From: Burkholderia seminalis DSM 23518 | Lineage (GTDB): Bacteria; Pseudomonadota; Gammaproteobacteria; Burkholderiales; Burkholderiaceae | Length of the DNA: 64,000 bases | Assembly (NCBI RefSeq): GCF_902832885.1 | Contig: NZ_CADFDK010000010.1 | Span: 62,001-126,000 of the forward strand | Direction of reading: 5' to 3' | Part shown: positions 1 to 3,361 of the stretch, in pieces | Layout: every line of letters begins with the position of its first letter | Numbering within the stretch: position 1 is the stretch's first letter | Made by a program: the position numbers and the translations under genes | The notes under the pieces: model-generated | What the model saw: the letters and a program-made list of their open reading frames with translations, nothing else | What the model was told of the DNA's origin: nothing | Database searches by the model: none

Positions 1-429
1 ACGCCGCCGAAGCTGAAGATCAAGACGGACGACTTCCGCGCGGGCGGGATGGACGCGACGGTCAAGGTCGATCAGGGCATGGAAGCGCTCGATGCGTCGT
101 TCTCTATGTCGACGATGGAATACGAAGTGCTGCGCTTCTTCGGTCTGGTGGATCAGGGGGCGTTCAACGCCGTTTTCCGCGCGGTCTTCATGGATCGCAG
201 CGGGAAGACGAAGAACGTCGCCGTGTATCTGCGCGGCATGCTCCACGAAGTCGATCCGGGCGACTGGAAGCCGGGCGACAAGTACGAGGCGAAATTCTCG
301 GTGTCGTGCGACTACTACAAGCTGGAGATCGCCGGAGCGATCGTGCACGAGATCGATGTCTTCGCGTCCAAGCGCGTGATCAACGGCGTCGATCAGCTCG
401 CCGAAGTTCGCAAGGGTCTCGGCATGTAA
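1..429 (+). CDS. Phage major tail tube protein (FII-like), 5' partial
   Basis: Structural protein that polymerises into the inner tube of a contractile phage tail. The frame is open from base 1. The residues before the ATG at 49 (PPKLKIKTDDFRAGGM) align with the P2 FII stretch PKL...YRGGGM, so the gene begins left of the window and the ATG at 49 is internal. The C-terminal half ends with VINGVDQLAEVRKGLGM, as in P2 FII (KVNGVDRLEQHRRNIGL). About 142 residues are visible of the usual 170. A strong hairpin terminator follows at 483-511. The sheath gene FI is expected just upstream. Confidence 0.9.
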   Translation, partial: TPPKLKIKTDDFRAGGMDATVKVDQGMEALDASFSMSTMEYEVLRFFGLVDQGAFNAVFRAVFMDRSGKTKNVAVYLRGMLHEVDPGDWKPGDKYEAKFSVSCDYYKLEIAGAIVHEIDVFASKRVINGVDQLAEVRKGLGM

Positions 430-527: not shown

Positions 528-830
528 ATGGAAAAGGTCACGGTCCCGCTCGCTTATCCGATCAAACTCAATGGTGTCGAGTGCGACAAATTCACGATGC
601 GCCGGCCGAAGGTGCGCGACATGCGTGGTGCGCAGAAGCTCGCGCCGAACGACGCCGAGCAACAGGAGCTGATCCTGTTCGCGAATCTCGCCGACGTCTC
701 GCCCGACGACATCGAAGACATGGACATGGCTGATTACGAGCGCGTGCAGGACGCGTACTACTCCTTTCGATCCGTACGCGAAGCTGGACCGAAAGACGCT
801 CAAGGCGCTGGCGAAGCGGCTGGTGCGTGA
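528..830 (+). CDS. Phage tail assembly chaperone, gpE-like
   Basis: Small protein (100 aa) that in P2-like phages coats the tape measure during tail assembly together with a frameshifted longer form. The ATG at 528 starts the domain (MEKVTVPLAYPIKLNGVECDK) and fits the tail-assembly E family; upstream in-frame codons overlap the terminator at 483-511 and were rejected. The last 20 residues after the frameshift site (TCC TTT CGA at 762-770) look like an unselected tail. Position between FII and T matches P2 E. Function is taken from family and order; the frameshift is described separately. Confidence 0.85.
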   Translation: MEKVTVPLAYPIKLNGVECDKFTMRRPKVRDMRGAQKLAPNDAEQQELILFANLADVSPDDIEDMDMADYERVQDAYYSFRSVREAGPKDAQGAGEAAGA

Positions 831-900
831 ATGCGGCATGTCGCCGACGTCGATCGACGAGATGACGGTCGACGACATGCTCTGGTGGTTGACGGATTGA
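769..900 (+). CDS. gpE' extension, probably made by +1 frameshift from gpE
   Basis: In the +1 frame relative to gpE an open stretch runs from 769 to the TGA at 898-900 and encodes DPYAKLDRKTLKALAKRLVR followed by a tail ending MTVDDMLWWLTD. That tail resembles the short P2 GpE/E' family, which has a conserved (L/M)xWR-like end. A slip on TTT to TTC at 765-768 in the context TCC TTT CGA would fuse residues 1-80 of gpE to these 43 codons, giving 123 aa. An internal ATG at 838 in this frame has no convincing ribosome binding site. Frameshifting is an inference; the alternative is separate translation from 838. Confidence 0.7.
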   Translation, partial: DPYAKLDRKTLKALAKRLVRECGMSPTSIDEMTVDDMLWWLTD

Positions 901-910
901 GGGGGCCGGG

Positions 911-3361
911 ATGGCGAAAGACTTAGCGCTTGGCATCGTGATCGGCGGGGCCGTCTCGGCAACGTTCGGGAAGGCGATCACCGACACTTCGTCGAAGATC
1001 GACGCGATGAAGAAGCGGGCGAACGACTCGCGGCTCTGGCAGCGCCAGATCGGCGAGACGATGCGCCTGCAGGACGAGTTCCGCCGGTTGCATTCGGCGG
1101 GCGACAGCGCGGCGGACGGCATTCGCCGCAAGCTCGACAGCAATCTGAAATCGCTGCGAGACGCTGGCATCGAGGTCGGCCGGCTCGATCGGGCGTATGC
1201 GCAGCTCGGGCGAACCGCTCGCGGGCTGGATCTGAAGGTGGCCGGCCGCGAGCGGTTGGCAGCCGGGCAAGAGGCCGGTCGCGGCGTGATCGGCGATGCG
1301 ATGAAGCTGACGGCGGCCGTCGCGGTGCCGGCGACGATCTCGGCGAACTATCAGGCGATCATCCGCGACATCGCGATCAAGGCCGGCATCGCGCGCACGC
1401 AGGAAGAAGCCGCGATGGGGGCGCGGATCAGGCGTGACGCCGGGGCGAACGGTATCGGCCGCAACGAGCTGGCCGACGCCGTCAACCAGATGGTCGCGGG
1501 CGGCATGGATCTGGATCGCGCGCTCAACTTCGCGCCGCTGGTTGCGAAGTTCTCGATCGGCCAAGGGGCGACAACTGTCGAGACCGCGAAGATGATCCAA
1601 GCGCTGCAGCAGAACGCGGAGATCGTCGACCCGAAGCAGATGTCGAAGGCGCTGGAATCGATCGCGTATCTCGGCAAGGAAGGGTCGTTCGAGTCCGTCG
1701 ACATGGCGCGGTGGTTCCCGGTGCTGCTCGCCGAAATGAAGAAGATCGGCATCACCGGGCAGGACTCGGTGACGCAGCTCGGGGCGATGCTCCAGGTGCA
1801 GATGAAGACGGCCGGCAGTTCGGACGAAGCCGCGAACAACCTGAAGAACTGGTTTTCGAAGATTGGCTCGGGCGAAACCGAGCGCAACTATGCGAAGGCC
1901 GGCGTCGACTATCAGGCAAAGATGCGCGAGGCGATCGGCAAGGGCTGGTCGACGCTGGAAGCGTCGTTCGTGCTCGCTCGCGCGTACATCGAGCGTGTCG
2001 ACCCGGCCAAGGCGAAGCAGCTCGCGGCTGCGGCGAAGCAGTTCAATTCGGAGATGGACCCCGCCAAGCGACAGACGCAGATGGCCGCGTTCGCCGAGAC
2101 GATGAAGACCGGCGACCTGTTCAACGACATGCAGGTCAAGGCGGCGCTGACGGCGTACATGCAGAACGCCGAGCTGTATTCGAACCTGAAGCGCAACGCG
2201 CAGCAGGCGAGCGGCGAGATCCAGAAGGATCTGGAAGCGCGTCGGGAGACGTCCAAACAGATCTGGAGCGAGGTTGGGCAGCGGTGGGACGACGCGATGC
2301 GCAGCATTGGCGACGCGTTGCGTCCGATCACGGATCGCGTCGGCGAGGCGGCGAAGGGGGCCGGCAGCGGTATCCAGTCCGCAGCAGACAGCGCCCCGAA
2401 GGCGACTGCCGCTGTCGTCGGCATTGCCGGCACGGTGCTGGCGGTGCGCGGAGCAAAGGCACTTTGGAGCATCGGTCGCGGCATGTTCGATATCGCGCGC
2501 GGGACCTTGCTGGCGCGTGGTGGTCGAGGGGCTGCGGGGCGTGCAGGTGGTGCAGGTGCTGCGGGCGGTGCTGTCGGGCGCGCGCTGGACGCGATCGGCG
2601 GGGCTGCGAGCGCGGCTGGGGGCGTGCAGCGCGTGTTTGTCGTGAACATGCCCGGCGGTGGCGTCGGAGGTGGTGGCCTTGGCGATCTGATGGGCGGTGG
2701 GCGTGCCGGTCGAGCCGCACGTCGTGCGGCAGCTCGGGCGGGGCGGCTCGGGAGGATCGGGCGGGTCGTCAACGCGGGGCGTGCGCTCTTCGGTCGGGTT
2801 GCGCCGTGGGCTGGGAAGCTGGCCGTCGCGGGGACCGTCCTGAAGTTCGGCCTTGCGGCTCGCGAAGCGTATGCCGTCGCGTCGAGCACTGATACGAACG
2901 AGCGGAAGGCGAGCCGCTTCGCCGGCATCGCCGGCAGTCTCGCGGGTGGCGTGATCGGCGCGAAGGTCGGGGCGACGATTGGTGCGCTCGGCGGGCCAAT
3001 CGGGTCTGCGGTCGTCGGCGTGATTGGCGGGGCTCTCGGGACGTTCGTCGGCGACAAGGCATTGAGCGCCATCGCGAGCAAGTTTCTGAGCAGGAAACCG
3101 GACGAGGTGCCCGCGAACGCCGAAGCGGTTGCCAAGGCAGCGAAGGCTGCTGAGAGTCCGGCGGCAGATAGCCGCTTCGGGCCGCGTATCGATCAGAAGA
3201 ACACGTTCGCGCCGGTCTTCCACGTGAAGATCGAAGCGAGCGATGCCGACATGACGAACAAGTTCCTCGCGCAGGTCAGTCCGCTGCTGACGCGGGCGCT
3301 GGACGAGCATCAACGCAAGGCGAACAGTCGAACGGCAATGTTCGACGCGCCGCATATGTAA
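911..3361 (+). CDS. Phage tail tape measure protein, gpT-like
   Basis: Scaffold that sets tail tube length and is ejected with the DNA. The 816-aa product is about the size of P2 gpT (815 aa), so tail length should be similar. The N-terminal third is alpha-helical and basic with a TP901-type tape measure core (residues about 130-400). The middle is Ala/Gly-rich with hydrophobic segments (about 490-580 and 635-725), usual for the part that contacts the host membrane. The ATG at 911 has a GGGGG stretch upstream as a weak ribosome binding site and lies 10 nt after the gpE' stop, as expected for a chaperone-tape measure pair. Confidence 0.92.
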   Translation: MAKDLALGIVIGGAVSATFGKAITDTSSKIDAMKKRANDSRLWQRQIGETMRLQDEFRRLHSAGDSAADGIRRKLDSNLKSLRDAGIEVGRLDRAYAQLGRTARGLDLKVAGRERLAAGQEAGRGVIGDAMKLTAAVAVPATISANYQAIIRDIAIKAGIARTQEEAAMGARIRRDAGANGIGRNELADAVNQMVAGGMDLDRALNFAPLVAKFSIGQGATTVETAKMIQALQQNAEIVDPKQMSKALESIAYLGKEGSFESVDMARWFPVLLAEMKKIGITGQDSVTQLGAMLQVQMKTAGSSDEAANNLKNWFSKIGSGETERNYAKAGVDYQAKMREAIGKGWSTLEASFVLARAYIERVDPAKAKQLAAAAKQFNSEMDPAKRQTQMAAFAETMKTGDLFNDMQVKAALTAYMQNAELYSNLKRNAQQASGEIQKDLEARRETSKQIWSEVGQRWDDAMRSIGDALRPITDRVGEAAKGAGSGIQSAADSAPKATAAVVGIAGTVLAVRGAKALWSIGRGMFDIARGTLLARGGRGAAGRAGGAGAAGGAVGRALDAIGGAASAAGGVQRVFVVNMPGGGVGGGGLGDLMGGGRAGRAARRAAARAGRLGRIGRVVNAGRALFGRVAPWAGKLAVAGTVLKFGLAAREAYAVASSTDTNERKASRFAGIAGSLAGGVIGAKVGATIGALGGPIGSAVVGVIGGALGTFVGDKALSAIASKFLSRKPDEVPANAEAVAKAAKAAESPAADSRFGPRIDQKNTFAPVFHVKIEASDADMTNKFLAQVSPLLTRALDEHQRKANSRTAMFDAPHM

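What the first reader, a model, noticed from the sequence alone, without database searches (positions are those of the whole stretch)
762..770. Probable +1 ribosomal frameshift in the tail chaperone gene at TCC TTT CGA
Gene E is open to 830, but the +1 frame from 769 to 900 encodes a tail resembling the P2 E' family. The only plausible link is a slip of tRNA-Phe from TTT to TTC before the slow CGA codon. The site reads TCC TTT CGA, the same layout as the influenza PA-X +1 site (UCC UUU CGU). P2 itself uses a -1 shift here, so a +1 site in this position would be a different solution to the same task.
Basis: partly seen in the sequence, partly recalled or inferred. Interest (0 to 1): 0.75.

Follow-up and report, generated by a model that had tools for sequence, protein, structure and literature searches.

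The report
Conserved +1 frameshift in tail chaperone
A bacterial virus tail gene carries a very strongly conserved TTT-C site at which some ribosomes probably skip one base forward to make a longer assembly protein, and the same site recurs in many related prophages and in a pyocin-like locus, resembling a site best known from influenza A.

Summary
Gene E (528-830, PF10109 tail chaperone) is followed in the +1 frame by a start-less tail E' (769-900); the join TCC TTT CGA lies at 762-770. All 60 loci at 56% identity or more from the first two searches have TTT CGA in register, and synonymous change switches from frame 0 to +1 exactly across 762-769. A later search added relatives at 58-65% identity with TTT CGC two codons earlier, and intermediates with both sites. 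Over 264 distinct loci with E' in +1, 263 carry an in-frame TTT followed by C at the end of the E domain; chance is about 3%. They include Burkholderia, Massilia-type and Pseudomonas prophages, Mu-like prophages and a record whose tail tube matches the R2-pyocin tube. Of 19 relatives with E' in -1, 18 lack TTT-C. I conclude: +1 slippage of tRNA-Phe from UUU to UUC. CGA is not essential: CGC, CGG, CGT, CAR and CTN also occur. The E'-P2 resemblance is weak by sequence. No experiment backs this. New variant of a known kind: phage tail genes are known to use -1, -2 or +1.

The parts
528..830 (+). Gene E, tail assembly chaperone (PF10109 Phage_TAC_7), frame 0, 100 aa
   Evidence: ORF; PF10109, E 4.5e-26, residues 5-80
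762..770 (+). Shift site TCC TTT CGA (frame-0 codons)
   Evidence: TTT CGA invariant in 53 of 53 distinct sequences of the first set; TCC varies to TCT and TCG
765..768 (+). UUU_C, proposed P-site slip: tRNA-Phe from UUU (765-767) to UUC (766-768)
   Evidence: in-frame TTT-C in 263 of 264 distinct loci with E' in +1; re-pairing inferred
769..900 (+). E', +1-frame tail (43 aa + stop) of the 123-aa E-E' fusion
   Evidence: synonymous change in the +1 frame begins here; hhalign to E' of -1 phages
673..768 (+). Upstream part of the +1 open frame; no ATG/GTG/TTG, so E' has no start of its own
   Evidence: sequence; no ORF of 30 aa or more listed in this frame here
1..429 (+). Tail tube FII (5' end lies before the window), gene upstream of E
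   Evidence: PF04985, E 1.2e-43
911..3361 (+). Tape-measure protein, gene downstream of E/E'
   Evidence: phrog_794, E 1.8e-175; PF10145

Best explanation
E and E' are the two overlapping chaperone reading frames found before the tape-measure gene of tailed phages. Most ribosomes translate E alone (100 aa). A minority slip one base forward with peptidyl-tRNA-Phe in the P site: it leaves UUU (765-767) and re-pairs, better, with UUC (766-768) while the next codon, CGA, waits for its single wobble-reading tRNA-Arg(ICG). Decoding resumes at GAT 769 and yields the 123-aa E-E' fusion. E presumably coats the tape measure and E' presumably brings in the tube protein, as lambda G and GT do. Shown here: the sequence, conservation, frame switch, lack of a start for E', tRNA gene set. 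Inferred: the slip itself, its direction, its efficiency and the protein's role.
For: TTT CGA in register in 60 of 60 loci at 56% identity or more. Frame-0 substitutions are synonymous up to 762-764 and +1-frame ones from 769 on; over the 106 distinct sequences best matched by the window's E, the synonymous share of codon differences falls from 0.24 to 0.07 in frame 0 and rises from 0.09 to 0.26 in +1 across the site. 178 distinct sequences have TTT CGN one or three codons after the conserved Tyr, four of them both (174, 4 more); the 13 others have E' in -1. 263 of 264 distinct loci with E' in +1 have in-frame TTT-C, 13 of 14 clusters at 50% identity throughout, against about 3.3% by chance. 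One tRNA-Phe(GAA); Arg tRNAs ACG x3, CCG, CCT, TCT and none TCG among 55 tRNA genes of the draft genome. Five fusions from three groups align without a gap across the join. Same layout as the PA-X site UCC_UUU_CGU, shown by mass spectrometry to shift +1 (PMC3498833).
Against: No protein or reporter data. Phe is encoded in both frames at the site, so part of the TTT-C and CGA invariance could be plain dual coding. In the Pseudomonas, pyocin-type and Massilia-type groups frame 0 stays constrained for several codons after TTT CGC; in the pyocin-type group the synonymous share over the next 14-15 codons is even higher in frame 0 (0.26) than in +1 (0.16), and the Pseudomonas C group has CTT or GTT before TGA, a second candidate +1 site. 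L263 has E' in +1 but CTT CGG, not TTT-C. No significant RNA structure close to the site (z -0.7 and -0.0; z -1.9, 6 of 200 shuffles as good, for 774-900), and no conserved Shine-Dalgarno-like stimulator was seen.
Confidence: 0.9

Rival explanations
1. A -2 slip, as reported for phage Mu, reaches the same frame and adds one residue (SFFDPY instead of SFDPY).
For: -2 in Mu is accepted (review PMC5009743, passages); Mu gp41 ends CGG GGG CGA, where GGG can re-pair two bases back (that this is the Mu site is recalled).
Against: At TCC TTT CGA a -2 slip would put tRNA-Phe on CCU (or CUU, CGU in the TCT and TCG variants), and the bases it would need vary freely: the codon before TTT is TCC, TCT, TCG, TAT, TAC, CGA, GCC, ACC and others. 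UUC, the +1 partner, is present in 263 of 264.
Confidence: 0.04
2. The +1 slip happens one codon earlier, tRNA-Ser from UCC to CCU (the antizyme-type site), giving the same peptide.
For: UCC_U is a known +1 site in antizyme (PMC3498833); TCC is the commonest preceding codon in the window's group (46 of 53).
Against: TCC is replaced by TCT or TCG in 7 of 53 sequences and by TAY, CGA or others in the other groups, while TTT-C stays.
Confidence: 0.03
3. E' is a separate gene with its own start (or a re-initiation product), and no frameshift occurs.
For: 146 of 263 loci have some ATG, GTG or TTG in the +1 frame upstream of the join.
Against: 117 of 263 have none, the window has none by reading, and the upstream part of the +1 frame is not under protein constraint.
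Confidence: 0.02
4. TTT CGA is conserved only because two overlapping frames both encode Phe there; the real slip lies elsewhere in 673-830.
For: Dual coding would fix 767 T and 768-770 C, G, A to a large degree; in the Pseudomonas C group the frame switch in substitutions lies at CTT/GTT TGA, eight codons after TTT CGC.
Against: In the window's group the switch of constraint falls on the site itself. In a Mu-like group of 20 the codons on either side vary while TTT is 20 of 20 and Arg is CGC 17, CGG 3. Tandem-site intermediates (L117, L118, L142, L143) and groups with one or the other copy fit a moving slip site.
Confidence: 0.06

Closest known systems
[quoted passage not shown] 2012 (PMC3498833)
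   Same: UCC_UUU_CG- layout, P-site UUU re-pairing to UUC, CGN in the A site, no evident RNA stimulator
   Different: Bacterial ribosome, phage tail gene, CGA not CGU; several groups here have CAR or CTN in the A site; no efficiency known here
Lambda G/GT and P2 E/E' -1 frameshift in tail chaperone genes
   Same: Gene position between tube and tape measure; overlapping second frame; presumed minority fusion; E' of -1 relatives homologous (hhalign 93.8%)
   Different: -1 on T TTT TTR or similar heptamers, versus +1 on UUU_C at the aligned Phe codon
Phage Mu gp41 -2 frameshift
   Same: Tail chaperone; same resulting frame; CGA as next codon in CGG GGG CGA
   Different: Needs a G run for two-base re-pairing, absent here
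Archaeal virus HSTV-2 tail chaperone (+1 called very likely in review PMC5009743)
   Same: +1 direction in a tail chaperone
   Different: Its site was not seen (papers not held)
FseA of rhizobial ICE (+1, shift site UUU, PMC5009743; PMC10359603)
   Same: Bacterial mobile element, +1 at a UUU codon
   Different: Transcription activator, not a tail gene; the following base was not seen in the passages read

Membership tests
PF10109 Phage_TAC_7 tail chaperone | Profile match above the curated cut-off | tested here: met
   91.1 bits against cut-off 25
Tail-chaperone frameshift pair (lambda G/GT type) | Overlapping frames between tail tube and tape-measure genes | tested here: met
   Tube 1-429, E/E' 528-900, tape measure 911-3361
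Tail-chaperone frameshift pair (lambda G/GT type) | Second frame has no start and is reached only by a shift | tested here: met
   No ATG/GTG/TTG in 673-768; 117 of 263 relatives likewise
Tail-chaperone frameshift pair (lambda G/GT type) | Fusion protein made as a minority product needed for tail assembly | not testable with these tools
   Needs protein or genetic data
UUU_CGN +1 shift class (PA-X-like) | UUU_C in frame with CGN in the A site, conserved | tested here: met
   53 of 53 distinct sequences of the window's group TTT CGA; 178 distinct sequences TTT CGN
UUU_CGN +1 shift class (PA-X-like) | +1 junction peptide proven | not testable with these tools
   No mass spectrometry
P2 E' family (PF06528) | Profile match of E' | tested here: not met
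   No PF06528 match at E 10; 9.5% against one P2-type E'
Mu-type -2 shift | Codon that re-pairs two bases upstream | tested here: not met
   UUU to CCU does not pair, and the needed upstream bases vary
-1 X_XXY_YYZ tail-chaperone site | E' in the -1 frame at a slippery heptamer | tested here: not met
   From the site the window's -1 frame stops after 32 codons and has no E'-like tail

The most novel reading that the evidence does not exclude
UUU_C +1 slippage is a widespread and old alternative to -1 slippage in contractile-tail chaperone genes, used by P2/Mu-like prophages of many proteobacteria and by R-type pyocins, with at least two changes of direction at one and the same Phe codon; it would bring the PA-X type of +1 site, so far described from eukaryotic viruses, into bacteria on a large scale.
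Probability: 0.75. Interest if true: 0.72.

Novelty: new variant of a known kind. Interest (0 to 1): 0.62.

Why it matters
In the phage records opened here that lack a frameshift note, E is annotated alone or E' is left out or called a separate hypothetical protein (for example); of the 14 records opened only Mica and Mano, both -1, annotate the fusion. A simple rule, in-frame TTT-C at the end of the PF10109 domain with a homologous tail in +1, would recover it in the +1 group. The family also gives many natural variants of a UUU_C +1 site in bacteria, with A-site and E-site codons exchanged by evolution, and a set in which the direction of slip differs between +1 and -1 at an aligned codon: a ready test set for how ribosomes choose direction. 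R-type pyocins are studied as antibacterials (general knowledge), so their full list of assembly proteins matters.

Tried and rejected
Downstream RNA structure as stimulator: not supported near the site. Shine-Dalgarno-like stimulator: CAGGA about 14 bases upstream is broken by CAA in 8 of 53 sequences, and the spacing is wrong for +1 (recalled). P2 E' membership of E': not supported. Transcriptional slippage: no run longer than TTT at the site, so not pursued. Tailocin reading of the locus: rejected for this copy, because the 20 kb upstream (L088) hold ORFs that look by eye like terminase, portal, protease, capsid and P2-type baseplate and sheath proteins; these were not searched against libraries. 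Structure of the fusion: not obtained. Solved-structure search with the fusion profile: only one chance-level hit, E 0.83. Literature: ten full-text searches (listings, with passages of some papers) showed no report of a +1 or TTT-C site in these genes; Xu et al. 2004 and Ramsay et al. 2015 were not looked up, and three papers looked up by id were not held.

Full report
What is there. Gene E (528-830) is a PF10109 tail chaperone (91 bits, cut-off 25) between the tail tube gene (1-429, PF04985) and the tape-measure gene (911-3361, phrog_794). In the +1 frame an open stretch runs from 673 to 900 with no ATG, GTG or TTG before the join, and from 769 it encodes a 43-residue tail, E', ending MLWWLTD. 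Reading TTTC (765-768) as one Phe gives a 123-residue fusion. The nine bases TCCTTTCGA by themselves are unremarkable: one hit in the window, 0.42 expected.

Closest relatives. A search of 65 genomes of the genus found the protein or a distant relative in 24; viral contigs gave 42 loci. Sixty of these loci, at 56% identity or more (the window's own copy included; several contigs repeat one phage), reduce to 53 distinct sequences. TTT is 53 of 53 and CGA 53 of 53, while the codon before is TCC 46, TCT 4, TCG 3, and the one before that varies too. Up to 762-764 differences are mostly synonymous in frame 0 and change the residue in +1; from 769 on the reverse holds (GAT/GAC, GCA/GCG/GCC and so on). 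For the 106 distinct sequences best matched by the window's E in the wider set, the synonymous share of codon differences is 0.24 upstream and 0.07 downstream in frame 0, and 0.09 upstream and 0.26 downstream in +1. In the window's group that places the change of frame at TTT CGA.

Wider family. With a profile of E and two single proteins, viral contigs (80 kept of 559; 21; 52) and named genomes (18 loci in Burkholderia, Trinickia, Massilia, Rugamonas, Pseudoduganella and Pseudomonas) gave more relatives. Not all close ones have TTT CGA: 14 distinct sequences at about 60-64% identity have TAC TTT CGC CTC ACA. Anchored on the conserved Tyr, 174 distinct sequences carry TTT CGN one codon (81), three codons (89) or both one and three codons (4) after it; the 13 without it are relatives with E' in -1. 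Four more (L256-L259) that the anchor pattern missed have TAT TTT CGT. The doubles (L117, L118, L142, L143: TAC TTT CGN TTT CGN) show how the site could move by two codons without a gap: five fusions from three groups align gap-free across the join. TTT among Phe codons elsewhere: 45 of 286 in E upstream of the site, 374 of 1669 in the tape-measure ORF, 106 of 409 in E of the widest set.

Mu-like and -1 relatives. Genome searches of order and class (16 of 399 and 7 of 369 genomes with a match), phage records (19 regions opened besides Mu) and a second profile (80 kept of 123; 3 more) brought in Mu-like chaperones. 369 loci were then classified by profile models of E' in both alternative frames. 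368 held an E match (L283 did not), 286 were distinct; three with E' scores of 8 bits or less (L360, L377, L282) were set aside. Of 264 with E' in +1, 263 have an in-frame TTT followed by C within 8 codons of the end of the E match; the exception, L263, has CTT CGG. Of 19 with E' in -1, one has it (Achromobacter phage Mano, GGT TTT CTC). Expected in a 16-codon stretch at the rate of the tape-measure ORFs: 3.3%. At 50% identity the 264 fall into 14 clusters, 13 of which carry the site throughout. Cautions: one of the three E' models was built from tails cut at TTT CGN sites; the other two were not, and L263 shows that loci without the site can be found. Loci are not independent, which is why the clusters are given.

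What follows TTT. The A-site codon is CGC 101, CGA 89, CAG 35, CAA 17, CTG 6, CGT 4, CGG 3, CTC 2, CAT 1, CTT 1 and four doubles. In a Mu-like group of 50 the Arg codon before TTT is CGA in 50 of 50. So UUU_C is the common core, and a CGN codon, often CGA, sits on one side or the other. In the draft host genome 55 tRNA genes include one tRNA-Phe(GAA) and Arg tRNAs with anticodons ACG (three), CCG, CCT and TCT, none with TCG (one of the 55 gave no clear anticodon and one was not called by ARAGORN), so CGA should be read by the inosine-bearing ACG tRNA (established knowledge). In three host ORFs of the window 0 of 141 Arg codons are CGA; in four tail genes 11 of 115. A slow CGA is plausible as a stimulator here but not needed across the family.

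The alternative at the same codon. All -1 relatives seen are at 48% identity or less to the window's E. E' of the +1 and -1 sets are related (hhalign probability 93.8, E 1.8e-7), as are +1 and Mu-like E' (96.8). A P2-like prophage on another contig of this genome has T TTT TTG and a PF06528 E' in -1. A tree of E from 56 representatives needs 3 changes between +1 and -1, at least 2 forced by well-supported branches, but 79 columns resolve it poorly.

R-type pyocin. The record OQ658366 (18.5 kb, called Pseudomonas phage sp.) has a tail tube that matches the solved R2-pyocin tube PA0623 over all 167 residues (E 2.4e-108), and its E has TAC TTT CGC with E' in +1. The 21 related contigs (6.9 to 57.6 kb) have the same TAC TTT CGC (21 of 21). 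I infer that R-type pyocins use this mechanism; PAO1 itself was not inspected.

Evidence that does not fit neatly. In the Pseudomonas, pyocin-type and Massilia-type groups frame 0 remains under constraint for several codons after TTT CGC; in the pyocin-type group the synonymous share just downstream is 0.26 in frame 0 and 0.16 in +1. The Pseudomonas C group ends frame 0 with CTT or GTT TGA (39 of 39; L256 has CTT TAA), the type of site used by release factor 2 genes. There the slip could lie at either place. In the window's group this ambiguity does not arise.

Mechanism and rivals. [quoted passage not shown] A -2 slip, a slip on UCC, a separate start for E' and a slip elsewhere are each contradicted by the variation listed above. 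No stimulatory structure stands out near the site (z -0.7, -0.0); z is -1.9 over 774-900, 6 of 200 shuffles as good.

What is known. A 2016 review (PMC5009743, passages read) states that tailed phages use -1, -2 (Mu) or +1 for the tail pair, naming the archaeal virus HSTV-2 for +1, and describes a bacterial ICE gene (FseA) with +1 at UUU. Firth et al. predicted a UUU_C class with CGN in eukaryotic viruses and left cellular use open. Papers on Burkholderia phages describe a -1 site (PMC3483164, passages), a GGGTTTT site (PMC7266877, passages) or report that none was found (KS10, PMC2628397, passages; KS10 was not checked here). Ten full-text searches showed no report of this site in these genes; the library lacks most subscription papers, so this is not proof of absence.

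Verdict.

Noticed in passing
L185, L209-L255 and others of group C (frame-0 end, about 24 bases after TTT CGC): A Pseudomonas group of E genes ends in CTT or GTT followed by TGA (39 of 39), the release-factor-2 type of +1 site, with E' in frame right after it; possibly a second slip site.
   Followed up: partly
L001 (G000 contig 8): The same genome has a P2-like prophage whose E gene carries T TTT TTG with a PF06528 E' in the -1 frame, so one host seems to serve both directions of slip.
   Followed up: yes
L074 (OQ658366): A record deposited as an 18.5 kb Pseudomonas phage carries a tail tube matching R2-pyocin PA0623 along its whole length and may be a pyocin locus or a close phage relative.
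   Followed up: partly
L336 1053-1487 (phage Mu gp41): The end of Mu gp41 reads CGG GGG CGA (its -2 site as I recall it), again with CGA as the next codon.
   Followed up: no
L086, L339, L340 and viral contigs among L341-L420: In one Mu-like group the codon before TTT is CGA in 50 of 50 distinct sequences, a rare Arg codon now on the 5' side of the slip codon.
   Followed up: partly
L263: The one locus with E' in +1 and no TTT-C has CTT CGG at the aligned place.
   Followed up: no
window 528-830: Bg_9562, a 111-aa antifungal prophage protein of B. gladioli, is placed in the tail chaperone superfamily (PMC9603447, passages); its authors left open whether two ORFs are used. Relation to this E was not tested.
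   Followed up: no
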